Assembly: GCF_003573695.1 (NCBI RefSeq)
Contig: NC_039360.1
Span: 125,760,336 to 125,824,335 of the forward strand
Direction of reading: 5' to 3'
DNA from: Papaver somniferum
Lineage: Eukaryota > Streptophyta > Magnoliopsida > Ranunculales > Papaveraceae
DNA: 64,000 nt
The position numbers were made by a program, and so were the translations under genes. Positions 5,610 through 31,783 of the stretch are shown here, piece by piece. Numbering within the stretch: the stretch's first letter is position 1; every line of letters begins with the position of its first letter. Below the pieces are notes generated by a model. It did not search any database. It worked only from the letters and a program-made list of their open reading frames with translations, and was not told the DNA's origin.

Positions 5610-5612
5610 TAA

Positions 5613-8620: not shown

Positions 8621-8790
8621 AGATTCGCAGAATTGTTCAGAATTTCGCAGAATTGTCAGAATTTCGCCGAATTATTCAGAATTTCGCAGGATTATTCAGA
8701 ATTTCACAGAATAGTTAAGAATTTCGCAGGATTGTTCAGAATTTCGCAGAATGATTCAAAATTTCGTCAAATGTGTCAGAATTTTGGAGA
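8621..8790 (+). repeat. ~21-bp tandem repeat with TTTCGCA cores
   Basis: About eight degenerate copies of TCAGAATTTCGCAGAATTG follow one another. Because the period is near 21 bp the frame stays open and translates to seven-residue repeats such as FRISQNC. TTCGCA motifs are scattered through the whole LARD interior; this is their densest cluster. Confidence 0.75.
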
Positions 8791-9316: not shown

Positions 9317-9822
9317 TGTAGGATCCAAATATTGCACAATAATAAGATCTCGCGAGAATGTAGGGAAGCTTGTGAGAGAACGTAGCATGTGTGCAAACTA
9401 AGATCCAACGTGAGCCTGCGAGAACATCGCACGGTGATTCTGAAATTAGGGGAAATGTTAGCCGTATCCCACCACATATGAGCTATCAGCCACTATGTAA
9501 ATATCTATATAAAGAGAAAGGTAGGAGAGAGAAAAGGAACGGGTATTATTATTATCTTCTTATTTTTTCCCAAAAACCAGAGAGAGGGAGAGAGCTCCAA
9601 ATACTCATTAATGGAGTCTCAATGTAATTCATATGTAATTCAATGATCATAGTGAAACCTAACCCCGTGGATGTAGATCAAATTGATCGAACCACGTAAA
9701 TCTTGTGTCTTATTTTCTATTTTCATTATATTTATCTTTATTTTCATATCAAATAAGTTTAGATCTAAAAATTATAGTCATGATAATACAAGGGGTGTGT
9801 TGTGGGATTTCCTGCAACTACA
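9317..9822 (+). repeat. 3' LTR of the 5106-9822 element
   Basis: It is a near-identical copy of 5106-5609 with the same TGTAG start and CTACA end. It is followed directly by the GTATT duplication, after which the interrupted host sequence (TAGATCTAAAAAC) resumes. Confidence 0.92.
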
Positions 9823-9827
9823 GTATT

Positions 9828-10429
9828 TAGATCTAAAAACAGTTCAAAGATCCCGTTGATACTTCGATCTAGTTTGAGTGAATGTTACTTTCTCAATTGC
9901 GTCATTTCTTCGGTTTCAGCAATTTCAGTGATTTCTTCTTCATCAACTGTTTTTGTATCCCGTTTGTGTTTAATTACTTTTATAAATCCAGGGTCTTCAG
10001 TACTGGGTATTCTATGCGTGTTTTTCATATGCTTCGGATTATGCATTTTTGAAGATTAATCGACGATGGAATTTTCGAATCGACGAGTTTTCAACCGATT
10101 TTTGATAAAGGGGGGACCAATTTCATCCAGTATGGTAGAAGAGAAGAGGGAAGTGGAGAAGATGAAATGAAAATGAAATGAGAAGATGAATTAGGTTTAC
10201 GTTTAATTATAATGGGAAAGGGTAGTTTTTTAACTTCACCCGTTAGGACTCCCCCCTTATCCCTTAAAAAGAGTCCACTTAAAATCGGGTCTACCCCAAT
10301 TAATCTGGGTCTACTCCAATTTGGCAAGGTTTTTATACTCAATGAATTCTTCTCAAATTTTTTTATTAATGAAAAATATCTTTGAAATAATGTTCAACAA
10401 CCTAGTTTTACATTTCATTAAGTTCCAAA
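9828..10429. other. Host sequence after the LARD insertion; no gene seen
   Basis: It continues the remnant that stops at 5105. The minus frame at 10091-10342 is rich in Pro, Ser and Leu without a recognisable domain. The stretch around 10240-10330 contains GTCTAC-rich repeats of unknown nature. Confidence 0.35.
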
Positions 10430-11593
10430 TGTTAGAGCACTGCTCGGTCGAACTCGCAAGCGTTGCTATCTCACGCTTGTTTGTCAAGTTTAGTTGCCAA
10501 AACTATAAGTCTTGATTTCTAGTCTACTTATAGCTAAGTCTCGGATTAGGATACTAAGTGTAGTTGAGCATTAAAATTCACGGCGTTCATCGATTGAAGA
10601 AGAAAAACTACTAAGGGGAGCTTGTTAAACTCATATATTACTCAATAGTCTATCTACTCTATCTCCTATTTGATAAAAAAGTCGTTTAGCTATATAGACT
10701 TCGATTATGCACATTTGATATTTTGAGCTGAGTTTAACTCGCTTATATATGTTGGTAAGATTTCGCTTTAACCAAGTTCATCTTATATTCTTGACGAAAA
10801 TCAAAAGATGATCATGTGAAAATCACCTGGTAACATCTTACACGATTTGTGTGAAACGATCATTTGATGTAGACTCGGAATGTTTCGTATTGATCACTCG
10901 TTCACTTGAAAATTGCTTTGAAGCTAATAGTTTGTGTGATACAACTATTGTGGTCTTCTAAGAATGTTTCAATGATTGAAATGGGAGTTTAGAATATACC
11001 ATGATTGGATATAGCACATTATGCGTACTTGTATGCTAAACTGTTGCATGTTATTCAAAGTCCGGGAACCATAGTATGCATACCCGTATGCGTACTGGTT
11101 GGTTAATGAAAGTCCGAGAACTTAGTATGATACCCGTAGGTGTATTGGAGTAAAGTTCATGTCCGGAAATTCAACTGAGTTTGGAGGTATGCATACCCGT
11201 TCGCATACTGGCGAACCCAAACTTAGTCCGTCCACTTAGGTATGCGTACCCGTTTGCATACTTGAGTAGGTTATGTTCTAAAATCGGTTTGTTCATGAAC
11301 TAATACAATTATATATTAAGGAATGCAATCTTTTTCAAACCGTGGCTATAATGTTCATGAATTGATTCAAGTGAATCAAAATTGAATCTTCTTCAATTGT
11401 GTCTTGTATACTTCTATGAGAATATAAACAATTGAACAACTCTAGACCTAGTTTCATTTGAGTCATTTGAACTAGTTATGGTTTATATGAATAAGGTTGA
11501 TATGAAAGTGTTCATATGGCTAACTTCGGTTAAATATTGTTGAGCCAACAAGGTGCACACATTTAGGTACGGTTACTCATATCTAAATGAAGT
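10430..11593 (+). repeat. 5' LTR of element A, first part
   Basis: It starts with the family signature TGTTAGAGCACTGCTCGG and runs to the GAAGT target site at 11589-11593. Positions 11030-11270 hold a cluster of GTATGCATACCC/GTATGCGTACTGG motifs typical of one LTR subfamily. Confidence 0.8.
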
Positions 11594-13946
11594 TGAAAAA
11601 GCAGGGGTACAACAACCACACCCAACAATTCGATTAGGAATCTGTATGGACAAACTCCAATATACTTTTTAGAGAATCAACTACACAGTCAGACTCAATT
11701 TAGAGAAAAGTATATCAAAGAGTTTATATCTCAATCTCTCGATTTGATCTTTACTCAAGCAAATGGAAATCTGCGAGTCTTTATCAAAGAGAGATAACTT
11801 GGATGGTACCAAAGACCAATATCCAAGTGTCAATCAATTTAAATCAACAACCAAAAGGTCATATATTCTAATTGATTGAACAACACACAACATGTGATAT
11901 TTCAATTATATAAACAAATATAATGCGGAATAGAAATAACACAAACACCAGAATTTTGTTAACGAGGAAACCGCAAATGCAGAAAAACCCCGAGACCTAG
12001 TCCAGATTGAACACACACTGTATTAATCCGCTACACACACTAGACTACTCCAAACTAACTTCGGTCTGGACTGTAGTTGAACCCCAATAAATCTCATACT
12101 GATCCAAGGTACAGTTATACTCCTACGCCTCTGATCCCAGCAGGATGCTACATACTTGATTCCCTTAGATGATCTCACCCACAACTAAGAGTTGCTACGA
12201 CCAAAAGTCGAAGACTTTAATAAACAAATATGTATCACACAGAAAAGTCTACGGTAATAGATAAATCTGTCTCCCACGAATATACCTATGAGTTTTTGTT
12301 CCGTCTTTTGATAAATCAAGGTGAACAGGAACCAATCAATAACCCGGACTTATATTCCCGAAGAACAACCTAGTATTATTGATCACCTCACAATAATCTT
12401 AATCGACGCAGCGAAAAAAGATATTGCGGAATCACAAACGATGCGACGAATATGTTTGTGACTTCTTTTCTATCTTGCCTATCGGATATATAAATCTCGA
12501 GCCAATTATTTCAATTGTACTCGTAACGATAGAAATAGCAAGATCAGATCACACAACTACGATAAAAGTAGTATCAGTCTGGTTTCACAATCCCAATGAA
12601 GTCTTTAAGTCGTTAAAATGGTTTAGAAGAAGAAACCAAACGTTAAAGGAGAATCGACTCTAGCTTAGCACAACTAGTATCACACAAAATGTGTGGGGAT
12701 TAGGTTTCCTAGTTTCTTGAGTTCTCCCTTATATAATCTTTCAAATCAGGGTTTGCAATCAATGTTAGCTTGGTAACAAATCATTCAATATTCACCGTTA
12801 GATGAAAACCTGATTAGATTCAAGCTAATATTTCTCAACTGTTGGATCGAAAACTTAGCTTGTTACACACAAATGAAATGTCCAATTTTGGGTTTATGAA
12901 CCGTACCCAAACATTAACATTTGTTGGTTCAACAATAGTTAACCAAAGGTTAGCCATATGATCACTTTCATATCAACCATCTTCTTCTTCACCATAAATA
13001 GTCCAAATGACTCAAATGAACTAGTTAGAGAGTTGTTCAATTGCAAGGAAATCTTATGTAACTACACAAGACACAATCGAAGCAAAATCGGTTTGATTCA
13101 CTCGAATCGGTTGATGAACTTTATAGCCACGGTTTGCAAAAGCATTCCTTAGTTTATTTAAACATTAGTTCAAGAACAACCGGTTTTAGATTAATCTGCT
13201 CAAGCTCGCGGACTGGGTTCGCGGACTTAAGTTCATGAAAGGAGTACACAAACTCCAGCAGAAATTCTCGGGTTTGAGAACTTCGCCAGTTCGCGGATTG
13301 AGTTCGCGGACTTGGCTCACGCCACTTCCATTTCTCTTGATCAACAAAGTTCGCACACTTTGGTTCAAGGAATAAGGACTTATACATATATGTGTTTCCA
13401 CAACAATGGTTATGTAATCTAAACTCTCATTTCAATCATTTGAAACATTCTCAGAGAACATTATATAGCCGTTATTCATAGACCGTTTTTCGTCAGAGCA
13501 ATTTCCAAAGTGATTGAAACATTACATGACTTTCGTCACTAGGCAAAGATGAATTTGGCTAAATCGAAAGCTTACCAACACATATTTCGAGAAATAGATA
13601 GACGAGATAAACTCATCTCAAAATAGCAAATGTGTATAATGAAAGTCTATACCAAAACAACTTTTTGTCTCAAGAGTAGGAGATAGAGTAAATAGACTTT
13701 TGAGTGATAGATAAGTTCAAGTCTCCATATACCTTTTAGTCGATGAAGATCCACCAGTTCCTTGAGTAGTCCTTCGTCTTGTATGATGATTTCCATGGAG
13801 TCTTGAGATCAACTACACTTTCTATCCTAGTCCGAGACCTTTAGCTAAATAGGCTAGAAATCAAGACTTATAGTTTTGATCACTAACATTGACAAACATG
13901 CTTGAGATAGCAACGCATGCGAGTTCGACCGAGTAATGCTCTAACA
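11594..13946 (-). mobile_element. Solo LTR of the long-LTR copia family, 2353 bp
   Basis: On the minus strand it starts TGTTAGAGCATTACTCGG at 13946 and ends CTGCTTTTTCA at 11594. It is flanked by GAAGT at 11589-11593 and 13947-13951. There is no primer site, gag or second LTR, so it is the product of LTR-LTR recombination after insertion. The equivalent LTR region at 26140-26160 shows the unoccupied site with a single GAAGT. It carries the AGTCCGCGAAC-type motif cluster at 13195-13320. Frames inside it are not genes. Confidence 0.92.
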
Positions 13947-13951
13947 GAAGT

Positions 13952-15307
13952 CACTTTTTATTTGTGTGTAACAATCTAAGTTCGATCTAACGGTTGAAAG
14001 ATATTAGCTTGAGTCTAATCAGTTTTTCATCTAACGTTGAATATTGAATGCTTTTTTTACCAAGGTAGCATTGATTTGAAACCCTGATTTGAAGACTATA
14101 TAAGGGAGAACTCTAGGAACTGGGAAACCTAATCCTCACACCTCCTGTGTGCTACTAGTTGCGACTAGAGTCGATTATCCATTAACCTTAGGTTTTTTCC
14201 AAAACCCTGTAGGATAACGACTTGAAGACTTCATTCAGATTGTGAAGCCAGACCCAAATATTTTCTTTGTAGTTGCGTGTTCTGATCTTGTTGTTTTCTA
14301 TCGTATTGAGTACTATATTCTCTAAGATTTGCTCTAGATTTAATCTCTGATAGGCAAGATAAAAAGTAATCACAAACATCTTCGTCTCATTGTTTGTGAT
14401 TCCACGCTGTTTTTCGGGAATATAAGACCGGTGTATGAATTGGTTCCTGTTCACCTTGGTTTATTAGTCCCCACACGTCTGTGTGATACTAGTGCGCTCG
14501 CTAGAGTCGATTCTCCTTTAACCTTTGGTTTTCTTCTCTAAAACCAGGTTAACGACTTAAAGACTTCATTGGGATTGTGAAGCCAGGCCGATACTACTTT
14601 TATCGTAGTTGTGTGATCTGATCTTGCATCTTCTATCGTACAAGTACAATCGATTGATTGGCTTGAGATCGTAAGAGTTCTCTGATAGGCAAGATAAATA
14701 AGTCACAAACATCTTCGTGTCACTGTTTGTGATTCCTCGACAAACCGCCTGTGTAGTCAGGAAGGATTGTAGAGAGGTGATTGATTAATCTAGGTTGTTC
14801 TTCGGGAATATAAGACCGGATTATCAATTGGTTCCTTTTCACCTTGATTTCATATCTTAAGACGGAACAAAACCTAGGGTTTATCTTTCGGAGATAGATT
14901 TATCCTTTGATAGACTTTTCTGTGTGAGACAGATTTGTTTATTATCAAGACTGCGATTTTGGGTTGCAACAACTCTTGGTTGTGGGTGAGATCAGCTAAG
15001 GGAATCAAGTGCGCAGTATCTTGCTGGGATCCGAGGCATAGAAGTACAACTGTACCTTGGATCAATGGGAGACTGATTGGGGTTCAACTATAGTCAAGTC
15101 CGAAGTTAGCTTGGAGTAGGCTAATGTCTATAGCGGCTTAATACAGTGTGTATTCAATCGAGAGGTTGAGATATAAACTCTTTGATATATCTTTTTATTG
15201 ATTGAGTCTGACTGTCTAGTTGATTCTCATAAAAAGTATATTGGAGTTTGTCCATAAAGATTGCTAAGTGAAATATTGGGTGGTGTTGTTAGACCCCTGC
15301 TTTTTCA
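13952..15307 (+). repeat. 5' LTR of element A, second part, with internal duplication
   Basis: It continues the LTR cut at 11593. 14130-14463 and 14466-14850 are two related but diverged versions of the same LTR segment; both run from ACTAGAGTCG or GCTAGAGTCG to GAATATAAGACCGG. Near 15150 the family's CTGGACTAGGTC-to-ATTATATT segment, present at 27005-27110, is deleted. The LTR is therefore a mosaic with one gain and one loss. Confidence 0.75.
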
Positions 15308-15309
15308 AT

Positions 15310-15321
15310 TGGTATCACAGC
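15310..15321 (+). other. Primer-binding site of element A, one base changed
   Basis: TGGTATCACAGC differs by one base from the initiator-methionine tRNA complement TGGTATCAGAGC found intact at 62831 and 22930. It lies two bases after the LTR end. Confidence 0.8.
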
Positions 15322-15374
15322 AGGAAAACACGTTTCAAGACCTCATCAGTTTGTGTTTGTAGAGATCTGACTCT

Positions 15375-15963
15375 ATGGACAAGAGTATTATCTCTGACAA
15401 TGCAACATCAGTACAAGACTACTCAGATAAGTTTCAAAAATCTGAAACCACTAAGGAAAACTCCTTCTCATCTCCTTCAACCGAATCTAAATCCAACTGA
15501 ATCTCTTGATGAACGGTTGGATGATCTCTCGGATGATAGTGATTCTGAAGAAGGACAAAGTCTTGATGAGGAAGTTTCCCAATACATCAAGTTGTTTAAT
15601 TGTGATTTGAAGGAAACAAGGACAACTGCTTGCTTGAGAAAGTATATGAGTCCTCTCTGTCAAGAAAACAGAAAGTTAAGAAAACTCTTCAAAGGTTATG
15701 ATGGTGGATACAAACTGTTACAATCTACCGTTGAAGATCATGAAGAAGAGGTTCGCTCAAAAAAATCTGAATGTGATAATCTTCTTCGTAACCTCTGTAT
15801 ATTAAAAGAGAGGCTTGCCGAAAGTGAAGCAAGATGTGAATCTCAACAGAAGTGTTTCAATGACAAAGAACACAGTCTTCTTATCAGAGAGAAACCCTTG
15901 GAAACCAAACTCACTGCTGCTCTTAATAAGGTAAAATCACTGGAAGAGAATTTAAATCACTAG
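15375..15963 (+). pseudogene. Gag-like coiled-coil protein of element A, frameshifted and truncated
   Basis: The likely start ATG at 15375 reads MDKSIISDNATSV for about 40 codons and stops. One frame over, from about 15490, an open frame continues through an acidic segment (ERLDDLSDDSDSEEG) and a long charged, heptad-like region (residues such as KERLAESEARCESQQK and LNKVKSLEENL). This suggests a coiled coil in a structural protein of the element. No retroviral-type pol follows; the frame ends at the junction with element B near 15957. Similar coiled-coil stretches occur at 21719-22849 and 53077-53433. Function in particle assembly is inferred. Confidence 0.6.
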
Positions 15964-18283
15964 ACAGTCAGACTCAATATAGATAAAAGTATCTCAAGTA
16001 GTTAATATCTCTCTCTTGATTTGATTTTTACTTAAGCTAAAAACAATAACGAGTCTTTATCAAATACAAGGAATAACTTGGACGGTACCAAGGACCAATG
16101 TCCAAGGATCAATCAATATCAATCAACAACCAAAGGTTGGATTTCCAATTGATGATCACGAACGCACAACCTGTATCATTTCAATTATATAAAATATAAT
16201 GCGGAAAAGAAATAACACAGACACCAGAAGTTTTGTTAACGAGGAAACCGCAAATGCATAAAAACCCCGGGACCTAGTCCAGATTGAATGCACACTGTAT
16301 TAAGCCGCTACAGACACTATCCTACTCCAAGCTAACTTCGGACTGGACTATAGTTGAACCCCAATCAGTATCCTACCGATCCAAGGTACAGTTGTACTCC
16401 TACGCCTCTGATCCCAACAGGATACTGCACACTTGACTACCTTAGATGATCTCACCCACAACAAAGAGTTGCTGCAACCCAAAATCGCAGACTTGATAAT
16501 AAACAAATCTGTCTCACACAGAAAAGTGTATAAAAGGATAAATATGTCTCCCAAAGATAAACCCTAGGTTTTATTCCGTCTTAAGATATGAAATCAAGGT
16601 GAACATGAACCAATTGATAATCCGGTCTTATATTCCCGAAGAACAACCTAGATTAATCAATCACCTCTCTACAATCCTTCCCGAATACACATGAGGTTTG
16701 TCGAGGAATCACAAACAGTGAGACGAAGATGTTTGTGACTTCTTTATCTTTCCTATCGGAGAACTCTCACGATCTCAAGCCAATAAATAGATTGTGCTCG
16801 TACGATAGAAGATCCAAAATCAGATCACTCAACTATGATAAAAGTAGTATCGATCTGGCTTCACAATCCCAATGAAGTCTTTAAGTCGTTAACCTGGTTT
16901 TAGAAAAGAAAACCAAAGGTTAAAGGAGAATCGACTCTAGCGAGCGCACTAGTATCACACAGACGTGTGGGGATTAGTTTTGCACAATGCTAGATGTCTC
17001 CTTTATATAGCCTTGAAATCAGGGTTTTGCCTTAGTTACAAAGCAATCCATATTCACCATTAGATGAAAACCTAATTTAGACTCAAGCTAATATTTCTCA
17101 ACCGTTAGATCAAAAACTTAGCTTGTCACACACACTTGGGTAGACGTTTACTGGGTTTGCAAAAACCATGCCCAAACGTGTACGTGTATGTTGGTTCAAC
17201 ATAGTAACCCAAAAGGTTAACCATATGAGCATTTCATATTAACCTTGTTCTTCTTCACCATAACTAGTTCAATTGACTCAAATGAACTAGTTGAAGAGTT
17301 GTTCAATTGCTATGAGATCTTATGTAACTACACAAGACACAATTAAAACAAAGATGACTCGATTCGATTGAATCGGCTCATGAACTTTAGCCACGTTTTG
17401 CATAAAGAATTCCTTAGTAATTTAAGTTTCATGTTCAGAGCACATCTTTAGATCATAACCACTTAAGCTCACAAATAAGTTCGCGGACTTAAGACAACCG
17501 GTGGAGTTTTCCAAACTCAGCAGAAAATCTCGGCAAAGAGATTTTCTCCAGTTCGCGGACTAACACGCAAACGAGTTTTTGGAAAATCCCAGCAGAAATT
17601 CTCGGTACGAGAACTTCCGTCAGTTTGCGGACTGAATTCGCGGACTAGGCTCGCGGACTGGGTTCGTGGACTTGGCAAACCCAATTCCTATCGTTTCTCT
17701 CAATCAACAAAGTTCGAAAGCTTCGGATTAAGGAATACATGGTTATGTAATCTAAACTCTTATTCCAATCATTGAGACATTCTCAGAGGACGTTATATAG
17801 CCGTTATTCACAGACCGTTTCACGTCAGAGCAATTCTCAAAGTAATTGAAACTTTTCATGACTTTCGTCACTAGGTGAAGATAAACTTGATCAAAGCGAA
17901 ACGGTTTATTAACACATGATTTCGAGATATAGATAGGCGAGATATACTCGGCTCGAAATATCAAATGTGTATGATCCAGTCTATATAGCATACGACTTTT
18001 GTCTCAGAAGAAGTAGGAGATAGAAGAGATAGACTTTTGAGTGATACATAAGTTCAAGTCTCCACATACCTTTTGTTGATGAAGTTCCACGGTTCCTTGA
18101 GTATATCTTCGTCATTGTATGATGAATCGCCATGAAGTCCTTGAGCTCAACTACACTTTTCTATCCTAGTCCGAGACTTAGTTATGTAGGCTAGAAATCA
18201 AGACTCATAGTTTTGATCAATAACATTGACAAACATGCTTGAGATAGCAACGCATGCGAGGTCGACCGAGCTATGTTCTAAAA
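15957..18283 (-). repeat. Distal LTR of element B
   Basis: It starts TGTTCTAAAA-complement at 18283 and is nearly identical to 19914-21210 over their shared ~1.3 kb. The end corresponding to TGAAAAAGCGGGGGTC is absent; the sequence breaks into element A at CACTAGACAGTC. The AGTCCGCGAAC motif cluster is at 17470-17680. Confidence 0.8.
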
Positions 18284-18790
18284 ATCTCCCCCTTTGTCAA
18301 TTTTAGTGACAAAACTATTAATATATATGGAATACAAAAAAGATAAACTTTAGTGGATCCTATTTCATAGTCTAATATTCAACGTTCCCTGAAATCTTCG
18401 TCCTTCCAAGTACTTCAATGATCCCAAAGGTTGTAAGTTTAGCATCACCGTTGTTGAAAATCCTTAGCTATAACAATGAGAGAAATCGAGATTCTCGATC
18501 ATCATTATACAGTGACATAGTATTATTATGTAACATCAAAGTCCAATTGCATCACTAATTTAACAATAATACTACGGTGATATGTATCACTCCCCCTTAG
18601 TCAATACTCCATCTAGATTATGGAAACCACTCCCCCTTACATAATGATCCGAAAACCATATGTATTTGTAGTGTGAACTACATTATTTCTCCCCCTTTTT
18701 GTCAATAAAATTTTCAAAGGTACAAGAACGGGATCATAATGAAATTTCCACAAGAGACATTTCATAGACTAAAAGAACATACCAACTTAA
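18284..18790 (-). repeat. Duplicated 3' interior segment of element B
   Basis: This ~507-bp segment, with polypurine tract AAAGGGGGAGAT next to the LTR, repeats at 21211-21717 with few differences. Past 18790 the two copies part: here into captured host DNA, there into the gag-like ORF. Confidence 0.8.
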
Positions 18791-19913
18791 TTTAGATGCA
18801 ATCATAAAGCCGAAGCTAAATCCATATCGCAAGACTCCCAGCCGATCCCTTTATGTTCAATGGAAAAATCTGCAAGAAAAAAGAGGTAGATTCATCATAA
18901 CCTGCGCTTTACGGCTTTACCTATAAAAGGCATGGCGGACAGTTTTAAGAGTGCTGAATTTACCTCGGACCTTACAACCCATGGTATTGCACCCAATCCT
19001 ATAGAGAAAAATCCTATGTACACCTTACATAAGTGAACAATCATGAATATTCTAGCACCTCGATAATGACAGGAGTTAGTATACAACTTTACTGTTTTAA
19101 AAGTCTTACCAGGATTCCTGTCAGAATGAATGCTGGTACTGCATCGAGCAGCAATTCATGCTCCTGATTTACTTAAACTGGTCAGGATTCAGGCATAGAA
19201 GAAAAGAAGGCAGAAAAATGGAGAGTTCTTTGTTGGAAAAATCGTTCAATTACCTTCAGAAAGAATGCAGCAGCACACAGGATGCAACCTAGAACCAGTC
19301 CTGCTATTGAGACCTATATAGAGAGCAAAAAAAAAAAGAGGCAGCGCTAAGATTGATGACAAACGACATTGCGTATAACTTTTTTGTAAGTATGATAAAA
19401 ACAAGTTTGAAACTTTACCAGTAGAAGTATTCTTCTTCCAGCTCTGTCTATTAAGACTGCACTCAGAGCGGTTAACACGATCTACAAAATACGAAAATCT
19501 ATCACCATATTGCAGAGGCAGGGAAATGTTCAGATATGCAGAAGGAAGAGTGCAAACCTGAAGAGCAGCACCAGCATTTGTTCCAATGTCTGGTGGAAAT
19601 CCTGAAAAATGAGGATAGACAGACAAAAATCACCAACCAGAACCAAAAGAGGATAAGATAATGAGATTGATTGGAGCAAGAGGGTCTATTAGCTATAGCG
19701 GTGTTACCTACGGACACAAAAATCTGGCTTTGATAAAAAAGAATGCCAGGCAATCCTCCAAACTTTTGACACACCATCAGTCCTACTCCAATCTAATTTC
19801 ACAGAGGCAAAATGAGTTGGATAAAAATCCAAGTGTTTCAAAATTGATAAACTGAAAATAAAAGACTTCCACCATGAAGTTTCAAAATCCAAGTGTTTCA
19901 AAACTAAAAGACA
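18791..19913 (-). pseudogene. Captured genomic fragment of the ERD6-like sugar transporter (exons 11 to 17, with introns)
   Basis: The minus strand here reproduces about 30421-31483 of the transporter gene 10 kb away, introns included, at roughly 97 percent identity by eye. Exon blocks for [35 protein letters not shown], the [13 protein letters not shown] block and [14 protein letters not shown] are all present. It begins in intron 10 and stops inside exon 17. At the intron-10 end a ~20-bp filler repeats TTTTGAAACACTTGGATT from just inside the fragment. Near 18791-18825 a short stretch matches neither element nor gene well. Introns show the copy was made from DNA or unspliced RNA. It cannot encode a transporter. 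Confidence 0.9.
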
Positions 19914-21210
19914 TTAGTTTTGCACAATGCTAGATGTCTCCTTTATATAGCCTTGAAATCAGGGTTTTTCCTTAGTTACAAAGCAATCCATATTCACCAT
20001 TAGATGAAAACCTGATTTAGATTCAAGCTAATATTTTTCAACCGTTAGATCAAAAACTTAGCTTGTCACACACATTTGGGTAGACGTTTACTAGGTTTGC
20101 GAAAACCATGCCCAAACGTGTACGTGTATGTTGGTTCAACATAGTAACCCAAAAGGTTAACCATATGAGCATTTCATATTAACCTTGTTCTTCTTCACCA
20201 TAACTAGTTCAATTGACTCAAATGAACTAGTTGAAGAGTTGTTCAATTGCTATGAGATCTTATGTAACTACACAAGACACAATTAAAACAAAGATGATTC
20301 GATTCGATTGAATCGGCTCATGAACTTTAGACACGGTTTTCATAAAGCACTCCTTAGTAATTTAAGTTTCATGTTCAGAGCACATCTTTAGATCATAACC
20401 ACTTAAGCTCACAAATAAGTTCGCGGACTTAAGACAACCGGTGGAGTTTTCCAAACTCAGCAGAAAATCTCGGCAAAGAGATTTTCGCGAGTTCGCGGAC
20501 TGACACGCAAACGAGTTTTTGGAAAATCCCAGCAGAAATTCTCGGTACGAGAACTTCCTTCAGTTTGCGGACTGAATTCGCGGACTGGGCTCGCGGACTT
20601 AGCAAAGCCAATTCCTCCGGTTTCTCTCAATCAACAAAGTTCGAAAACTTCGGATTAAGGAATACATGATTATGTAATCTAAACTCTCATTCCAATCATT
20701 GAGACATTCTCAGAGGACGTTATATAGCCGTTATTCACAGACCGTTTCACGTCAAAGAAATTCTCAAAGTAATTGAAACTTTTCATGACTTTCGTCACTA
20801 GGTGAAGATAAACTTGATCAAAGCGAAACGGTTTACTAACACATGATTTCGAGATATAGATAGGCGAGATATACTCGGCTCGAAATATCAAATGTGTATG
20901 ATCCAGTCTATATAGCATACGACTTTTGTCTCAGAAGAAGTAGGAGATAGAAGAGATAGACTTTTGAGTGATAGATAAGTTCAAGTCTCCACATACCTTT
21001 TGTTGATGAAGTTCCACGGTTCCTTGAGTAGATCTTCGTCGTTGTATGATGAATCTCCATGAAGTCCTTGAGCTCAACTACACTTTTCTATCCTAGTCCG
21101 AGACTTAACTATGTAGGCTAGAAATCAAGACTCATAGTTTTGATCAATAACATTGACAAACATGCCTGAGATAGCAACGCATGCGAGGTCGACCGAGCTA
21201 TGTTCTAACA
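19914..21210 (-). repeat. Partial LTR of element B (first ~1.3 kb)
   Basis: It starts at 21210 with the complement of TGTTCTAACA and matches 16971-18283 closely, then breaks at 19914 where the captured gene fragment begins. The motif cluster with AGTCCGCGAAC is at 20415-20600. Confidence 0.8.
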
Positions 21211-21221
21211 ATCTCCCCCTT
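21211..21221 (-). other. Polypurine tract of element B
   Basis: AAGGGGGAGAT on the minus strand directly abuts the LTR start TGTTAGAACA. This is the plus-strand priming signal of LTR retrotransposons. The same sequence sits next to the LTR at 18284. Confidence 0.8.
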
Positions 21222-21718
21222 TGTCAATTTTAGTGACAAAACTATTATTACATATGGAATACAAAAAAAATAAACTTTAGTGGATCCTATTTCATAGTCT
21301 AATCTTCAACGTTCCCTGAAATCTTCGTCCTTCCAAGTACTCCAATGATCCCAAAGGTTATAAGTTTAGCATCACCGTTGTTGAAGATCCTTAGCTATAA
21401 CAATGAGAGAAATCTATATTCTCGATCATCATTATACAGTGACATAGTATTATTATGTAACATCAAAGTCCAATTGCATCACGAATTTAACAATAATACT
21501 ACGGTGATATGTATCACCCCCCCTTAATCAATACTCCATCTCGATTATGGAAACCACTCCCCCTTACATAATGATCCGAAAACCATATGTATTTGTAGTG
21601 TGAACTATATTATTTCTCCCCCTTTTTGTCAATAAAATTTTCAAAGGTACAAGAACGGGATCATAATGAAATTTCCACAAGTGACATTTCGTAGACTAAA
21701 AGAAAAATACATACCAAC

Positions 21719-22849
21719 TTAATTTACACAAATATGAGCATTCAGCTCATTAAATGAACATTGCTTTTGTTTGGCCTTCCTTCTTTGATTATCACTCAGT
21801 TTAGAAAAATAAGACATAGCTTGTTCTGCATATTCTTCTGAAGGCTTTCTCTGAGGACTAAATCTAGGACCTCTTGTAATTGGTTCAAGGGGATCAGAAA
21901 AGATGGGAATCCATTTTCTAGGTTTAGATTTACCAAAAACATTCTTATAAACACTGGGAATACATTCATCAGTAATATGAGAGTTAGAATGTACCTTTGT
22001 CTTGTGATGACTTTTAGGAAGAATTCCATGTTTATAAGGTTCTTGGTTTTCTGTGGATATACGATTCACTGTGGTAGTCGTCTGACTATTTTTTCTATCG
22101 ATAGTGGATAAAAACAAATTACGAAGCTTATAAATTTGTTTCTTTCTGGAAAAAACATGGAGAGCATAGTGATTTCCTTTTCCACAGAAGGTACAAGTTC
22201 GTGGTGGAGAAGTAACAACATGCACTTGTTTGAACTTCATAGCCACCGGAGAAAATTGTAAGTTATGAAAAAATTTCTTGACACAATCTTCATCTGGAGA
22301 AAGTTTCATTCTATACAGTAATTCATGAGAATTAGTTTGTGCAGAAGAACTTTTCATTAAGACAGAGTTTTCCTTTTCCAGGGATTTGCACTGTCTATGG
22401 GCTAGAGCAAGTGAGGTTTCAAGTTTCTCAACATGAAGTCTGTCTAGATCGGATGAATGCGTCTTGATCAAACATTTTTCTCTAATTGAGCCTTCTCTGA
22501 CCAGCTTTTCAAGATCACAAATCTTTTCACGCTGTATATTGTTTTCTTGAAGAAGTTTCTCAATTTCCTTAGAGAAAGACCCTAGAATGTTGTAGAGTAC
22601 CTGTTCACGATCAATAGACTTCTCGAATTCATCAATGAGCTTGAGATCAACAAACTCTGTAGAATTTTTTGTAATTCTGGTGAGCTCCATTTCAGCTTTA
22701 TCTATTATGTCCAATGTCTCATTGGAGGAAGAGTGGCTGACACAAGATGAGACAGTCTTCCTACCTCGGGATTCGGAAGAATCAGCTAAGGAGTGATCCT
22801 TTGAGATATTTCCGAGACACTTGAAAAAGTTGATAGCTTTAAGAGGCAT
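21719..22849 (-). CDS. Gag-like coiled-coil protein with damaged zinc knuckle, element B
   Basis: ATG at 22849 opens 376 codons on the minus strand, starting MPLKAINFFKCLGN. The N-terminal half is charged and heptad-rich (EFEKSIDREQVLYN, KLETSLALAHRQCKSLEKEN), consistent with a coiled coil. At about residue 220 there is CTFCGKGNHYALHV, a CCHC-type knuckle in which the last cysteine is replaced by valine. The C-terminal part is basic (SRKKQIYKLRNLF, RRKAKQKQ). The usual copia gag UBN2-type domain, present at 62895, is absent. It lies between primer site and polypurine tract, so it is the only protein of this non-autonomous element. Nucleic-acid binding is likely; particle function is inferred. 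Confidence 0.65.
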   Translation of the reverse strand: MPLKAINFFKCLGNISKDHSLADSSESRGRKTVSSCVSHSSSNETLDIIDKAEMELTRITKNSTEFVDLKLIDEFEKSIDREQVLYNILGSFSKEIEKLLQENNIQREKICDLEKLVREGSIREKCLIKTHSSDLDRLHVEKLETSLALAHRQCKSLEKENSVLMKSSSAQTNSHELLYRMKLSPDEDCVKKFFHNLQFSPVAMKFKQVHVVTSPPRTCTFCGKGNHYALHVFSRKKQIYKLRNLFLSTIDRKNSQTTTTVNRISTENQEPYKHGILPKSHHKTKVHSNSHITDECIPSVYKNVFGKSKPRKWIPIFSDPLEPITRGPRFSPQRKPSEEYAEQAMSYFSKLSDNQRRKAKQKQCSFNELNAHICVN

Positions 22850-22929
22850 TTTGGTATGCGTATGAGATTCTGTCCACAAACCCAGATAGCCACAAACACA
22901 GACTTATAAGGTCTTTGACGTGTTTGCCT

Positions 22930-22941
22930 GCTCTGATACCA
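22930..22941 (-). other. Primer-binding site of element B (initiator Met tRNA)
   Basis: TGGTATCAGAGC on the minus strand, two bases after the LTR end CTTTTTCA, is a perfect match to the plant copia primer site. Confidence 0.9.
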
Positions 22942-22943
22942 AT

Positions 22944-25342
22944 TGAAAAAGCGGGGGTCTAACAACACCACCCAATATTTCGCTTAGCAATCTGTATGGA
23001 CTAACTCCGAAATACTTTGCTAGAGAATCAACTAGACAGTCAGATTCAATCTAGATAAAAGTATCTCAAGGAGTTAATATCTCTCTCTTGATTTGATTTT
23101 TACTCAAGCTAAAAACAATAGCGAGTCTTTATCAAATACAAGGAATAACTTGGACGGCACCAAAGACCAATGTCCAAGGATCAATCAATATCAATCAACA
23201 ACTAAAGGTTGGATTTCCAATTGATGATCACGAACGCACAACATGTATTATTTCAATTATATAAAATATAATGCGGAAAAGAAATAACACAGACACCAGA
23301 AGTTTTGTTAACGAGGAAACCGCAAATGCATAAAAACCCCGAGACCTAGTCCAGATTGAATACACACTGTATTAAGCCGCTATAGACATTAGCCTACTCC
23401 AAGCTAACTTCATACTGGACTATAGTTGAACCCCAATCAGTCTCCCACTGATCCAAGGTACAGTCGTACTCCTATGCCTCGGATCCCAGCAAGATACTGC
23501 GCACTTGATTCCCTTAGCTGATCTCACCCACAACCAAGAGTTGTTGCAACCCAAAATCGCAGTCTTGATAATAAACAAATCTGTCTCACACAGAAAAGTC
23601 TATCAAAGGATAAATCTGTCTCCCAAAGATAAACCCTAGGTTTTGTTCCGTCTTAAGATATGAAATCAAGGTGAACAGGAACCAATTGATAATCCGGTCT
23701 TATATTCTCGAAGAACAACCTAGATTAATCAATCACCTCTCTACAATCCTTCCTGACTACACAGGCGGTTTGTCGAGGAATCACAAACAGTGACACGGAG
23801 ATGTTTGTGACTTCTTTATCTTGCCTATCAGAGAAATCTTACGATCTCAAGCCAATCAATCGATTGTACTTGTACGATAGAAGATGCAAGATCAGATCAC
23901 ACAACTACGATAAAAGTAGTATCGGCCTGGCTTCACAATCCCAATGAAGTCTTTAAGTCATTAACCTGGTTTTAGAGAAGAAAACCAAAGGTTAAAGGAG
24001 AATCGACTCTAGCGAGCGCACTAGTATCACACAGACGTGTGGGGATTAGTTTTTCACAATACTAGATGTCTCCTTTATATAGCCTTCAAATCAGGGTTTT
24101 GCCTTAGTTACAAAGCAATCCATATTCACCGTTGGATGAAAACCTTATTTAGATTCAAGCTAATATTTCTCAACCGTTAGATCGAAAACTTAGCTTGTCA
24201 CACACACTTGGGTAGATGTTTACTGGGTTTGCGAAAACCATACCCAAACGTGTACGTGTATGTTGGTTCAACATAGTAACCCAAAAGGTTAACTATATGA
24301 GCATTTCATATTAACCTTGTTCGTCTTCACCATAACTAGTTCAATTGACTCAAATGAACTAGTTAAAGAGTTGTTCAATTGCTATGAAATCTTATGTAAC
24401 TACACAAGACACAGTTGAAACAAAGATGATTCGATTCGATTGAATCGGCTCATGAACTTTAGCCACAGTTTGCATAAAACACTCCTTAGTAATTTAAGTT
24501 TCATGTTCAGAGCACATCTTTAGATCATAACCACTTAAGCTCACAAACAAGTTCGCGGACTTAAGACAACCGGTGGAGTTTTCCAAACTCAGCAGAAAAT
24601 ATCGGCAAAGAGACTTTCGCCAGTTTGCGGACTAACACACAAACGAGTTTTTGAAAAGTCCCAGCAGAAATTCTCGGTACAAGAACTTCCGTCAGTTCGC
24701 GGACAGAGTTAGCGGACTGGGTTCGCGGACTTGGCAAATCCAATTCCTCCGGTTTCTCTCAATCAACAAAGTTCGAAAACTTCGGATTAAGGAATACATG
24801 GTTATGTAATCTAAACTCTTATTCCAATCATTGATACATTATCAGAGGACGTTATATAGCCGTTATTCGCAGACCGCTTCACGTCAGAGCAATTCTCAAA
24901 GTAATTGAAACTTTTCATGACTTTCGTCACTAGGTGAAGATAAACTTGATCAAAGCGAAACGCTTTACCAACACATGATTTCGAGATATAGATAGGCGAG
25001 ATATATTCGGCTCGAAATATCAAATATGTATGATCTATTCTATATAGCATACGACTTTTGTCTCATAATAAGTAGGAGATAGAAGAGATAGACTTTTGAG
25101 TGATAGATAAGTTCAAGTCTCCACATACCTTTTTGTTGATGAAGTTCCACGGTTCCTTGAGTAGATCTTCGTCGTTGTATGATGAATCTCCATGAAGTCC
25201 TTGAGCTCAACTACACTTTTCTATCCTAGTCCCAGACTTAGCTATGTAGGCTAGAAATCAAGACTCATAATTTTGATCACTAACATTGACAAACATGCTT
25301 GAGATAGCAGCGCATGCGAGGTCGACCGAGCTATGTTCTAAC
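22944..25342 (-). repeat. 5' LTR of element B, full length 2399 bp
   Basis: It runs from TGTTAGAACATAGCTC (25342) to CGCTTTTTCA (22944). The AGTCCGCGAAC-type motif cluster is at 24545-24740. A conserved transcript-end region reads CTGGACTAGGTCTCGGGG and an ATTATATTTTATATA block. Confidence 0.88.
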
Positions 25343-27413
25343 ACCAAGTTCATCTTATATTTTGGTCGAAAGTCAAAAGATGATCATGTGAAAATCGCCT
25401 GGTAACATCTTACATGATTTGTGTGAAACAGTCATTTTATGTAGACTCGGAATGTTTCGTATTGATCATTCGATCACTTGAAAATTGATTTGAAGCTAAT
25501 AGTTTGTGTGAGACAGCTATTGTCCTCTTCTAAGAATGTTTCAATGATTTAAATGGGAGTTTAAAACAATTAAACATGATTAAATATAGCACAGTATGCG
25601 TACTTGTATGCTAAACAGTTGCATGTTATTCCAAATCCGGGAACCATAGTATGCATACCCGTATGCGTACTAGTTGGTTAATGAAAGTTAGGGAACTTAG
25701 TATGCATACCCGTATGCGTACTGGAGTAAAGTTCATGTTCGGAAATTCAACTGAGTTTAAAGGTATGCGTACCCGTTCGCATACTGGCGAACCCATACTT
25801 AGTCCGGCCACTTAGGTATGCCTACTTGAGTAGGTTATGTTCTAAAATCGGTTTGTTCATGAACTAATACATTTATATATTAAGGAATACTTTTGCAAAC
25901 CCTGACTATAATGTTCATGAATTGATTTAGTGAATCAAAATCGATTTTGCTTCAATTGTGCATTGTATACTTCAATGAGAATATAAACAATTGAACAATT
26001 CTGGAACTAGTTTCATTTGAGTCATTTGAACTAGTTATGGTTAAGATGAATAAGGATGATATGAAAGTGTTTATATGGCTAACTTCTGTCAACTATTGTT
26101 GAGCCAACAAGGTGCACACGTTTAGGTACGGTTACTCATATCTAAATGAAGTCACTTTTCATTTGTGTGTAACAAGCTAAGTTCGATCAAACAGTTGAGT
26201 CTAATCAGGTTTTCATCTAACGGTGAATATTGAATGCTTTGTTACCAAGGTAGCATTGATTCCAAACCCTTATTTGAAGACTATATAAGGGAGAACTCTA
26301 GCAACTGTGAAACCTAATCCCCACACCTCCTGTGTGATATTAGTTGCGAGTAGAGTCGATTATCCTTTAACCTTAGGTTTTTTCCAAAACCCTGTAGGTT
26401 AACGACTTGAAGACCTTATTGGGATTGTGAATCCAGACCCAACTATTTTCTCTGTAGTTGTGTGTTCTGATCTTGCTGTTTTCTATCGTATTGAGTACTA
26501 TCTTCTCTAAGATTTGTTCGAGATTTAATCTCTGATAGGCAAGATAAAAAGTAATCACAAACATCTTCGTATCATCGTTTGTAATTCCACAATATCTTGT
26601 TTCGCTACCATATAATTAAGATTATTGTGAGGTGATTGATATTACTAGGATGTTTTTCGGGAATATAAGGCCGGTGTATCAATTGGTTCCTGTTCACCTT
26701 GATTTATCAAAAGACAGAACAAAACTCATAGGTATTTCTGTGGGAGACAGATTTATCTATTCAATAGACTTTTCTGTGTGAGAGAGATTGGGTTATCAAG
26801 TCTTCGACTTTGGGTTGTAGCAACTCTTAGTTGTGGGTTAGATAATCTAAGGGAATGAAGTGCGCAGAGTCTTGCTGGGAATTCAGAGGCGTAAGGAATG
26901 TGATTGTACCTTGATTAGTGTGAGATTGGTTAGGGCTCAACTACATTCCATTCCGAAGTTAACTTGGAGTAGGCTAGTGTCTGTAGCGGCTTAATACAGT
27001 GTGGTGTTCAAATCTGGACTAGGTCCCAGGGTTTTTCTGCATTTGCGGTTTCCTCGTTAACAAAATTTCTAGTATATGTGCTATTTCTTTTCCGCATTAT
27101 ATTTGTTTATATAATTGAAATATCACAGATTGTGTGTAGTTCAATCAATTAGATAATCCAACATTTGGTTGTTGATATAAATTGATTGACACTTGAACAT
27201 TGGTCTTTGGTTCCGTTTCTTATAATAATCAAGCTCATGGATTTCTATCTGTTTGATTTGCTGATTACATTAAGAAACAAAGATATAACTCTTTGATATA
27301 TTTCTTGATTGAGCTCGCTTTATTAGTTGGTGCTCTCAGAATTATATTAGGGGTTAGTCCATACAAATTGCCTAAACGAAATATTGAGTGAGATTGTTAG
27401 ACCCCCGCTTTTT
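25343..27413 (+). repeat. 3' LTR portion of element A
   Basis: It begins CCAAGTTCATCTTATATT, equivalent to about 10780 of the 5' LTR, and ends CCGCTTTTTCA at 27413. It keeps the GTATGCGTACCC motif cluster (25640-25820) and shows the unoccupied form of the nested insertion site (26148-26152). Confidence 0.8.
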
Positions 27414-27659
27414 CACCAACATTTTAATAATAAGCAAACGCTATCGCATTACATAACTCTTAATCAAAATTAAATCCGTGCACATGAATCTTGTAGAGTT
27501 GATAGCGTCCATCATGCTTAAACTTTCTTCTGTAGTCTTCAATATATTTGATATGAGCTCTAATTTTCTAAAAAACAAATAAATAATAATAAGTTAATAT
27601 TTTTAAAATTAAGTAAAAGTGATTTGTTAAAAAAACAAATAATATACTCATTAATTAGT

Positions 27660-28046
27660 TGATGGACAACCGAGGATGATCCCCTTTATTTGTGTACAAT
27701 CAATCCGAGTTCTTCTTTTCCTAAATTTAATTTTATCATGGAAATATTTCGTACTTAGATCATCAAACCTAAGTACATTTTCTTTAGCCCTTTGCATGTA
27801 AAAATCGTACTGCACATTATACCAGTGGTTAAGTTTCTCTTCTAACTCAAGTTACTCAACTATAGGCTGGCTCCCTATTTGCACTTCTATTCGGATTGAC
27901 ATTAGCAAGTTGATCCTAGTTTTCCTTAATCTGTTGTTGGATATTTCCAAAGGGTTGCCAGTTCGAGGTCTAAGCATTGCTTTAACATTATGTAAAGACT
28001 TAACAAGCCTAAAAGCATTTGAGCCACTAATACTAGCATTGCTCAT
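27660..28046 (-). pseudogene. LINE ORF2 fragment (linker between endonuclease and reverse transcriptase)
   Basis: Minus-strand reading gives LEEKLNHWYNVQYDF, QRAKENVLRFDDLSTKYFHD and KIKFRKRRTRID, which resembles the W-G-D-N-T-FFH and RRR-NRI part of plant L1 ORF2. No endonuclease or RT core is visible nearby. It is too short and isolated to be a gene. Confidence 0.45.
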
Positions 28047-28581: not shown

Positions 28582-31500
28582 ATGAAAGGGGAAGTAAGAA
28601 AACCACTCATAACAAACAGTAACCCACACCAACATCATCATCATCAAGAAGAAGAAAATGGGGTACAAAGAGGAAACAAAGAAAGCTTATGGATGGTTTA
28701 CTTGAGTACTTTTGTTGCTGTTTGGGGTTCTTTTGAATTTGGTACTTGTGTAAGTACTTCCATGTCTTCACCATTTTTGTATATGTTCACCAGTGTTTTG
28801 TTTATCTAACCGGACTTATTTTTTTGTATGGGTCTGTGTTTTTAGATAGGGTACTCATCGCCTACTCAAGCTGCGATTACGGAGGAGCTCAATCTATCTT
28901 TAGCAGAGGTTTGAGTTTGGATTATGTTTTAGTACAGTCTGAATTACTCCAATACTTATACTCATTGGAAAAATTGGTGGGGACTTGTAAAGAACTCGCT
29001 TTACTTTACGAGTAGGCCACATACCGAAATCAGGACTTATGATGCTGATAGATATGCACTTTAAATGTGAAATAGGTGGTGATGTTTTTGTGCATAATTT
29101 GGTATGGTTTCAATTATTACTTTTGAACTTTTGATTTTCTTTCAATTTTCAGTACTCGGTTTTCGGCTCCATTTTGACAATTGGTGCTATGGTTGGCGCA
29201 GTCACAAGTGGGTTGATTGCTGATTTCATCGGGCGGAAGGGGGTAAGAAATACAAGACCCTCCCATACCAAAAAGTTACCGTCTATAGTTTGGCCTTTTC
29301 ACCAGTAACTGGGTTATTTCATTCCGCGGACACTTGCAGGCATTGAGAACATCTGCTGCTTTTTGCGTTGCAGGATGGCTTTCCATATACTTTGCAAAGG
29401 TTTGTTAAATGATTATCTAGCCTTGATTCTTGAAAATTGAATCTTAGTAGCTATAAGTAAATGATCAGTTTGCATGATTTATGTTACTACCCAGGGGGCC
29501 CTGGCGCTCGACTTTGGAAGACTAGCTACAGGATATGGCATGGGAGTTTTTTCCTATGTGGTAAATTTTCATTTTTCTAGGAGCAAACCTTGGTAATAAA
29601 CTAAAATTGTGTAAATTTGAAGTTGTAACATATAAATGGATGGAACAGGTACCTGTTTTCGTTGCTGAAATATCTCCCAAGAATCTTCGAGGTGCCTTGA
29701 CAGCATTGAATCAGGTTCAGATCCTGGCACATACAATTCTAATGAAAAATAGTTAATATAACGGCAGAAAGACTAAATTTCTACATTTACAGGTTATGAT
29801 TGCCTCTGGAGTTTTTGCTTCATATTTGATGGGGACGATTCTAACATGGCGCGTCCTAGCGATATTTTGTACCGTCAAAAACCTTTAGTTTGCATTGTAT
29901 ATGGAGCCTTTAAACCATAGACAACAGCATCAAAAGTACTGATTCATAAACTTTGATTTGCAGCACTGCTTCCTTGCGCTGTCATGCTTATTGGCCTTTT
30001 TCTCATTCCAGAATCTCCTAGATGGCTGGTAAGGGACTACTGTCAATAACTTCAGTTTTTGTATATTGTGCAAGAAGTGTAAAAATGAAATTACAGAATC
30101 ATAGTACTCCGGCGATATTTATGTGTAGGCCAAAATCGGAAAACAAAAAGAGTTTGAAGTGGCACTGCGGAAGTTAAGGGGCAAGGAAGCTGATATTTCT
30201 GGTGAAGCAGACGAAATTCAAGTTGGTCACAATCCTGAACCCCCCAGCATTGCTAGATTTTAAGAATTAAAATTGATGTAATGAAGTGATGATTTTTTGT
30301 TGTTGTTTTTCAGGATTATCTGGAAACGCTTCAAAAGTTGCCGCAGGCCAAAATGTTGGATTTGTTTCAGAAAAGATATTTGCGCTCAGTCACCGTTAGT
30401 ACCTCTCTTGCATAATGTGTATTGAAACTTCATGGTGGAAGTCTTTTATTTTCAGTTTATCAATTTTGAAACACTTGGATTTTTATCCAACTCATTTTGC
30501 CTCTGTGAAATTAGATTGGAGTAGGACTGATGGTGTGTCAAAAGTTTGGAGGATTGCCTGGCATTCTTTTTTATCAAAGCCAGATTTTTGTGTCCGTAGG
30601 TAACACCGCTATAGCTTATAGACCCTCTTCCTCCAATCAATCTCATTATCTTATCCTCTTTTGGTTCTGGTTGGTGATTTTTGTCTGTCTATCCTCATTT
30701 TTCAGGATTTCCACCAGACATTGGAACAAATGCTGGTGCTGCTCTCCAGGTTTGCACTCTTCCTCCTGCATATCTGAACATTTCCCTGCCTCTGCAATAT
30801 GGTGATAGATTTTCGTATTTTGCAGATCGTGTTAACCGCTCTGAGTGCAGTCTTAATAGACAGAGCTGGAAGAAGAATACTTCTACTGGTAAAGTTTCAA
30901 ACTTGTTTTTATCATACTTACAAAAAAGTTATACGCAATGTCGTTTGTCATCAATCTTAGCGCTGCCTCTTTTTTTTTTGCTCTCTATATAGGTCTCAAC
31001 AGCAGGACTGGTTCTAGGTTGCATCCTGTGTGCTGCTGCATTCTTTCTGAAGGTAATTGAACAATTTGTCCAACAAAGAACTCTCCATTTTTCTGCCTTC
31101 TTTTCTTCTATGCCTGAATCCTGACCAGTTTAAGTAAATCAGGAGCATGAATTGCTGCTCGATGCAGTACCAGCATTCATTCTGACAGGAATCCTGGTAA
31201 GACTTTTAAAACAGTAAAGTTGTATACTAACTCCTGTCATAATCGAGGTGCTAGAATATTCATGATTGTTCACTTATGTCAGGTGTACATTGGATTTTTC
31301 TCTATAGGATTGGGTGCAATACCATGGGTTGTAATGTCCGAGGTAAATTCAGCACTCTTAAAACTGTCCGCCACGCCTTTTATAGGTAAAGCCGTAAAGC
31401 GCAGGTTATGATGAATCTACCTCTTTTTTCTTGCAGATTTTTCCATTGAACATAAAGGGATCGGCTGGGAGTCTTGCAATATGGATGAACTGGTTCGGCT

Positions 31501-31783
31501 CATGGGTGACTTCCTATACATTCAATTATCTTATGAGCTGGAGCTCTTACGGTAACCAACTAGTCTCCATTTCATCTACCGAATTCAAACATTTACGTAT
31601 AGTTACTCAAAAAGTAAAGGAAAATCACTCGAAAAACATACTGAAAGAGCTTTGAATCCGTTTTCAGGCACATTTATCTTGTATGCTGTGATAAATGGAC
31701 TAGCAATAGTATTTATCGCCATTTTAGTACCCGAAACAAAGGGAAGAACTTTGGAAGAAATTCAAGCAGCCATCAACAAGTGA
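28582..31783 (+). CDS. ERD6-like monosaccharide transporter (major facilitator superfamily), 18 exons
   Basis: Exons: 28582-28749, 28846-28908, 29153-29242, 29340-29399, 29495-29560, 29649-29714, 29793-29868, 29964-30028, 30129-30221, 30314-30394, 30515-30599, 30706-30749, 30826-30888, 30993-31052, 31143-31196, 31283-31342, 31437-31551, 31668-31783. All have GT-AG borders and consistent phases, giving 1425 bp or 474 codons, the usual family length. Family marks: [21 protein letters not shown] (first helix), [13 protein letters not shown] loop, PESPRWL after helix 6, DRAGRR loop, [15 protein letters not shown] at the C-terminus. The N-terminus has a His run and a dileucine-free polar tail. Relatives move hexoses, often out of the vacuole with protons. 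Helix 7 reads [10 protein letters not shown] where relatives usually have QQ and often GIN or similar. A ~1.06-kb part is copied in element B. The gene looks intact. Confidence 0.92.

What the first reader, a model, noticed from the sequence alone, without database searches (positions are those of the whole stretch)
18791..19913. LTR element holds a 1-kb genomic copy of the sugar transporter gene located 10 kb away
The sequence shows exons 11-17 with introns, in the same orientation as the element, at about 97 percent identity, replacing mid-LTR-to-gag sequence in one of two tandem units. A ~20-bp filler copied from the fragment itself sits at one junction. Introns rule out capture of spliced mRNA. 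Filler and local donor suggest template switching or break repair using the neighbouring gene. If transcribed from the LTR, it could make RNA homologous to the working gene.
Basis: partly seen in the sequence, partly recalled or inferred. Interest (0 to 1): 0.78.

Follow-up and report, generated by a model that had tools for sequence, protein, structure and literature searches.

The report
Break-repair patch copied from neighbouring gene
A plant retrotransposon was probably broken and patched with a one-kilobase copy of the sugar-transporter gene next door, an unusually readable case of a known, error-prone kind of DNA repair rather than a new kind of gene capture.

Summary
Window 18820-19885 is an inverted, intron-containing copy of donor 30422-31486 (exons 11-16 and part of 17 of an apparently intact 18-exon sugar transporter), 98.6% identical over 1066 bp. 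One junction has a 6-bp microhomology, the other a 27-nt filler of two donor scraps. In a genome search that scores best candidates, only donor, homeolog and paralogs match it; no other element copy carries it. Of 14 substitutions, 13 are on the fragment.

The 'tandem unit' beside it (19913-21726) is itself a private-ended local copy of 16973-18794. A third local copy, 14465-15159, is inverted from LTR 23354-24048. All three have about the same apparent age.

Best explanation: DNA break repair with template switching inside a resident LTR element, copying DNA within about 13 kb. Capture during reverse transcription is unlikely. The kind is known (complex plant filler DNA); the length, three dated local templates and a shared switch point near a predicted LTR transcription start make it a good example. 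RNA effects on the gene are untested.

The parts
18820..19885 (-). F: copy of donor 30422-31486, sense on minus strand; exons 11-16 at 19708-19792, 19558-19601, 19419-19481, 19254-19313, 19110-19163, 18964-19023 and part of exon 17 at 18820-18869 (coordinates computed by hand)
   Evidence: blastn 98.59%; alignment and polarised changes; splice sites kept
18820..18825 (.). 6-bp microhomology ATCCAT shared by element and donor at the left junction
   Evidence: 14 of 14 fetched copies, which had been picked because they match 18791-18825 wholly or nearly, go on as ATCCATT; donor reads TTCATCCATATT; window reads ATCCATATCG
19886..19912 (-). filler: 8 nt as donor 30441-30448, one G, then 20 nt as donor 30464-30483 (the last 2 overlap the F edge)
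   Evidence: exact-match scan of the junction against the donor
19913..21726 (-). B: copy of 16973-18794 (3' internal end, polypurine tract and U3 of the LTR), private junctions at both ends
   Evidence: best non-self match of 40 scored is 16973-18794 (2978 bits against 2797 next); U3 2.75% against at least 4.23% for 37 genomic loci
18284..18819 (-). intA: 3' internal end of the element, next to F
   Evidence: matches 13 of 14 fetched copies over most of its length, L022 not
15955..18283 (-). LTR_A, lacking about 82 bp at its U5 end; its U3 is the likely template of B
   Evidence: blastn to LTR5, divergences
22944..25343 (-). LTR5, 2400-bp LTR followed by a tRNA-type primer binding site (by reading) at 22943
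21719..22903 (-). open frame of 394 aa (first ATG at 22849) with a CTFCGKGNH zinc-knuckle-like motif (by eye; no Pfam match)
14465..15159 (+). G1: inverted 695-bp copy of LTR5 R-U5 (23354-24048), starting at the LTR position where B ends
   Evidence: 2.16%, 2.03% for 691 bp of it; best non-self match of 40 scored, none of the 39 crosses its ends
28582..31783 (+). donor gene: 18-exon sugar porter, 474 aa, no internal stop, all introns GT-AG
   Evidence: splice model; PF00083 E=1e-87; TIGR00879 above cut-off
30422..31486 (+). donor segment
10430..27415 (.). retrotransposon cluster absent from the matching point of the homeologous locus; flanks CCAAA / CCAAC look like a target-site duplication with one change
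   Evidence: homeolog 5257903-5258510 matches 9823-10434 and 5258500-5258767 matches 27416-27690; flanks read

Best explanation
The fragment is filler from DNA double-strand-break repair in place. An LTR element already resident upstream of the transporter gene was broken in its internal region. A broken end was extended by copying nearby DNA: most likely the element's own 3' end and U3 (giving B) and, with short stuttering switches that left the 27-nt filler, 1066 bp of the unspliced transporter gene on the opposite strand about 11 kb away (giving F). The patch was joined on one side through a 6-bp microhomology, ATCCAT. The gene kept its sequence, so this was copying, not excision. Shown: local donor, introns, filler, microhomology, donor intact, fragment in no other copy found, B a local duplicate adjacent to F and of the same apparent age. 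Inferred: that B and F belong to one event, the direction of synthesis, and the enzymes (synthesis-dependent strand annealing or polymerase-theta end joining).
For: Donor 10.5 kb away at 98.6%. Homeolog only 94%, paralogs 68-71% over long matches. 13 of 14 substitutions, and the one indel, on the fragment branch. Microhomology and scrambled donor filler. All six introns kept. No other element copy with F: 31 of 41 rows match only the element end of the query. B's best non-self match among 40 scored of 17230 candidates is 16973-18794, and 9 of 9 places whose match reaches that point (A and 8 elsewhere) stop at B's right edge. Per-lineage divergence F 1.23%, A 1.39%, B 1.23%, G1 1.15%, LTR5 1.01%: F differs from none of these (Fisher P 0.82-1.0); LTR5-A is 2.86% per lineage, F lower with P=3e-4. 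Cluster absent from the homeologous locus. In print, plant end joining leaves fillers copied from nearby sites, also from two sites (PMC2686159, passages), and theta-mediated joining leaves microhomology and templated insertions, also from other molecules nearby (PMC10923293, passages).
Against: A 1.07-kb (or 2.9-kb) patch is far longer than the fillers in the passages I saw (1-131 bp in maize loci; 1-123 bp at rice excisions). The right edge of B could not be compared with an intact close copy: L015 is too distant, L054 is itself rearranged, and the genome search for it did not complete. Equal age is also what separate events close in time would give, and the intervals are wide. LTR5 is no closer to A than to unrelated copies, so that LTR5 and A flank one element is not shown. 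The slow donor (1 change) is only explained by assuming a slower rate in the gene.
Confidence: 0.72

Rival explanations
1. Two steps: unequal exchange between LTR_A and LTR5 made a tandem element with a hybrid middle LTR (U3 like A, R-U5 like LTR5). A later break at that middle LTR was repaired with F, and the R-U5 half (G1) ended up inverted at 14465-15159.
For: B is mostly A-like up to LTR position 1290 and G1 mostly LTR5-like from 1367. B ends at 1299 and G1 starts at 1296-1299. Both pairs are reciprocal nearest relatives of about equal age.
Against: Needs further rearrangements to move and invert G1, and a separate change in B at 21727. The stretch after G1 (15160-15954) is not the internal region that follows LTR5.
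Confidence: 0.22
2. Capture during reverse transcription: the enzyme switched from element RNA to unspliced transporter RNA, and the chimaera was inserted.
For: Fragment and element have the same sense; the switch point lies near the predicted RNA start.
Against: The donor is 10.5 kb away in a 2.7-Gb genome. Six introns are kept. No other copy with F was found. B and A are local duplicates. Of 55 matches to the U3/R region in 54 fetched loci, 51 span it and the 4 others end at 1241, 1245, 1324 or start at 1409, none within 10 nt of 1297.
Confidence: 0.03
3. Assembly artefact: donor sequence wrongly joined into the repeat cluster.
For: Single assembly, 34283 contigs, repeat-rich region, no reads available.
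Against: The copy differs from the donor at 14 sites and one indel, 13 of the 14 private to the copy; junctions carry microhomology and scrambled donor filler. A misjoin would be expected to give identity or gaps.
Confidence: 0.03

Closest known systems
Complex filler DNA at plant end-joining junctions (maize p2/p1: 50 bp from two nearby sites; PMC2686159, passages seen)
   Same: Filler copied from nearby sites, in scrambled pieces.
   Different: Here 1066 bp (perhaps 2.9 kb), with introns, in a retrotransposon, from the opposite strand 11 kb away.
Gap patching that moves gene pieces (Wicker et al. 2010: title seen only in the reference list, paper not held; the idea is described in PMC3445842 passages, where I did not check which reference is cited)
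   Same: Gene sequence used as filler DNA by synthesis-dependent strand annealing, linked to transposable elements.
   Different: The passage ties it to element insertion; here the break is inside an element and the donor is a close neighbour.
Polymerase-theta templated insertions in Arabidopsis (PMC10923293, passages seen)
   Same: Microhomology plus short templated fillers from molecules nearby.
   Different: F is long; the enzyme was not tested.
Gene capture by Pack-MULEs, Helitrons, CACTA, Harbinger or LTR retrotransposons (named in PMC3445842 passages)
   Same: A gene fragment inside a mobile element.
   Different: By reading, no terminal repeats or target duplication at F's ends; no spread of F with the element found.

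Membership tests
Templated filler / patchwork break repair | Insert copied from an identifiable donor that is retained | tested here: met
   Donor intact; 1 of 14 substitutions on the donor branch
Templated filler / patchwork break repair | Microhomology or scrambled short fillers at junctions | tested here: met
   ATCCAT; two donor scraps
Templated filler / patchwork break repair | Loss of target sequence at the break | tested here: inconclusive
   14 of 14 fetched copies continue past 18825 with other element sequence, and a distant copy has about 1.9 kb between the two flanking parts (L015), but no allele without the patch was available
Retrotransposon (RNA-level) gene capture | Spliced or polyadenylated copy, or spread of the captured piece with the element | tested here: not met
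   Introns kept; F in no other copy found (best candidates only)
Pack-MULE / Helitron / CACTA capture | Element-specific termini bounding the captured piece | tested here: not met
   By reading only: LTR-element sequence on both sides, no inverted repeat or target duplication at 18820 / 19912
Plain segmental duplication | Copied host flanks beyond the element | tested here: not met
   Homology to the donor locus ends at 18820 and 19885; flanks are element or filler sequence
Copia-type LTR retrotransposon (the host element) | LTRs, tRNA-type primer site, polypurine tract, Copia gag and pol order | tested here: inconclusive
   LTRs by blastn, primer site and tract by reading; Copia gag PF14223 E=2.6e-16 only in relative L020; the window's own 376-aa frame has no Pfam match; pol order not tested

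The most novel reading that the evidence does not exclude
One local event of replication-type template switching rebuilt 14465-21726 (about 7 kb) with at least three templates: the element's own 3' end (B), a sister LTR (G1, inverted) and the neighbouring gene (F, inverted). Two of the copies share a switch point at the LTR's predicted transcription start. That would be a kilobase-scale, dated plant counterpart of multi-template rearrangement, with the transcription start as the fragile or pausing site.
Probability: 0.25. Interest if true: 0.55.

Novelty: new member of a known kind. Interest (0 to 1): 0.36.

Why it matters
It shows one way in which pieces of neighbouring genes, introns included, can get into retrotransposons without transposition, and so a possible source of gene fragments credited to capture. 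Because donor, copy and homeolog are all present, the event can be dated relative to its surroundings, and it gives a paired comparison of change in gene and transposon surroundings: 1 against 13 in the same 1060 sites (P=0.0018).

Tried and rejected
RT-mediated capture: rejected for the local donor, the introns, no spread of F found, and no recurrent break at U3/R. Plain segmental duplication: rejected. The homeolog as donor: rejected, 94% against 98.6%. A first alignment with the homeolog in the wrong orientation was discarded and redone. A first nearest-neighbour table gave 0.00 for L020 in R-U5, an artefact of a stub of sequence, and was redone with a 90% coverage rule. My first splice model was wrong at four exon borders and was redone. 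Not answered: genome-wide pattern counts at the predicted start, genome search with LTR_A and with LTR5, copies of the B/gag junction. Plasmid search: no match.

Full report
1. Setting. The window is C3:125760336-125824335 of a 2.715-Gb genome in 34283 contigs. I take it for opium poppy from size and a recent genome doubling (recalled; no call names it). Stretch 10430-27415 is a cluster of LTR-element pieces.

2. The observation. Window 18820-19885 matches 31486-30422 at 98.59% over 1066 bp. The donor lies in an 18-exon gene, 28582-31783, with all introns GT-AG and an uninterrupted 474-aa product of the sugar porter family (solved relatives include SLC2 and STP10 transporters). F starts in intron 10 and ends within exon 17; its six complete introns keep GT and AG.

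3. Uniqueness. A genome search with 18791-19913 gave 41 rows: F itself, the donor, a homeolog on C5977 (94%; collinear neighbourhood), paralogs at 68-71% in their long matches plus shorter remnants, and 31 rows that match only the element end at query 1-43. No other element copy carries F in that search, which scores only the best candidates.

4. Polarity. With the homeolog as outgroup, 1060 comparable sites show 14 differences between F and donor: 13 on the F branch, 1 on the donor branch; a 1-nt insertion is also F's. Exonic changes are 4 of 416, intronic 9 of 649. The homeolog differs from both at 35 further sites.

5. Junctions. Left: 14 of 14 fetched element copies read GCTAAATCCATT...; the donor reads TTCATCCATATT; the window switches inside the shared ATCCAT. 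The copies had been picked for matching up to that point, so only what follows it is informative. Right: after the U3 end ...AAAACTAAT come GTCTTTTA (as donor 30441-30448), one G, and TTTTGAAACACTTGGATTTT (as donor 30464-30483), and then donor sequence from 30422 onward. The pieces are out of order, as expected of stuttering template use. By eye there is no microhomology at the U3 side. My inference is that synthesis started at the microhomology and ended at the filler, but the reverse is possible.

6. The element. On the minus strand there are LTR5 (25343-22944, 2400 bp), a tRNA-type primer site, an open frame of 394 aa, and, left of F, a 3' internal end with polypurine tract and LTR_A (18283-15955). 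A relative (L020) has a Copia gag match, PF14223; the window's own frame has no Pfam match. At the homeologous locus 10434 and 27416 are adjacent, so the cluster is missing there.

7. The second unit is a copy too. B (19913-21726) is closest to A (16973-18794): 2978 bits against 2797 for the next of 40 scored out of 17230 candidates. In U3 they differ by 2.75%, against at least 4.23% for 37 other loci. B's right edge is private: A and the 8 other places whose match reaches that point (two of them as a second piece) all stop there. Its left edge is the filler. So B and F lie side by side between two other parts of element sequence, which is why I read them as one composite patch of 2.9 kb. What an intact close relative has at B's right edge I could not establish (search unanswered).

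8. A third local copy. G1 (14465-15159) is an inverted copy of LTR5 23354-24048: 2.03% over the 691 bp compared, against at least 4.05% for 45 loci, best non-self of 40 scored out of 12243 candidates; none of the 39 other scored places crosses either end in one match. G1 begins at the LTR position where B ends (1296-1299), near the start predicted from a TATATAAA box 37 nt before the B edge (no transcript data). In fetched copies this point is normally intact: 51 of 55 matches span it, and none of the four others ends within 10 nt of it. The copies were picked by similarity, so this is no random sample.

9. Dating. Per-lineage changes: F 13/1060, A 18/1296, B 16/1296, G1 8/695, LTR5 7/695, all 1.0-1.4% and F statistically like each of the others; LTR5-A is 2.86% per lineage, more than F (P=3e-4); the donor has 1/1060 and is lower than each of them. 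Equal age of A/B, G1/LTR5 and F fits one event or a short series. The slow donor is explained most simply by a slower rate in the gene than in the transposon (inference).

10. Mechanism. In-place break repair with copying from nearby DNA accounts for what was seen at F. Unequal LTR exchange followed by a break is the main rival for B and G1: B matches A at 45 of 65 informative substitution sites (5-type at 18, neither at 2), with A-type sites up to 1290; G1 matches LTR5 at 42 of 49, from 1367. Those are the halves such an exchange would join. It needs extra steps to invert G1 and does not explain the stretch beyond 15159, where 15156-15395 resembles other copies and the rest found no match among the loci held.

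11. Known background. In the passages I saw, plant end joining inserts filler from nearby sites (PMC2686159), theta-mediated joining leaves microhomology and templated insertions, also from neighbouring molecules (PMC10923293), gene sequence can be used as filler DNA by synthesis-dependent strand annealing (PMC3445842), and rice excision fillers are 1-123 bp (PMC4423477). I make no claim that such long local patches are unreported.

12. RNA effect. F sits a few nucleotides after the predicted start of the B promoter, in transporter sense. A transcript would be sense RNA. Nothing here tests whether it exists.

Noticed in passing
18820-19885 against 30422-31486: 13 changes in the transposon-embedded copy against 1 in the gene since the split (P=0.0018): a paired test of mutation rate or constraint in gene and transposon surroundings.
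   Followed up: partly
11594-13946: Solo LTR of a related family inserted in an older LTR, with target-site duplication GAAGT on both sides (read).
   Followed up: partly
10430-14464 and 25344-27415: Two partial copies of an older LTR, plus strand, about 89-90% alike in the overlapping pieces, bounding the whole cluster; outer flanks CCAAA / CCAAC.
   Followed up: partly
5106-9822: Direct repeats 5106-5609 / 9317-9822 (96.4%) around a stretch absent from the homeologous locus: another likely young insertion.
   Followed up: no
15160-15954: Plus-strand U5 end, primer site and start of a different gag, joined to G1 with about 260 bp of LTR missing; in fetched copies the two parts match only as separate pieces.
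   Followed up: partly
1-1010, 35525-35988, 32708-32916: Tandem repeat arrays seen as off-diagonal matches.
   Followed up: no
18791-18825: A 35-bp element stretch is identical or nearly so in 31 listed places, though the sequence around it differs more, perhaps a conserved end of the coding region.
   Followed up: no
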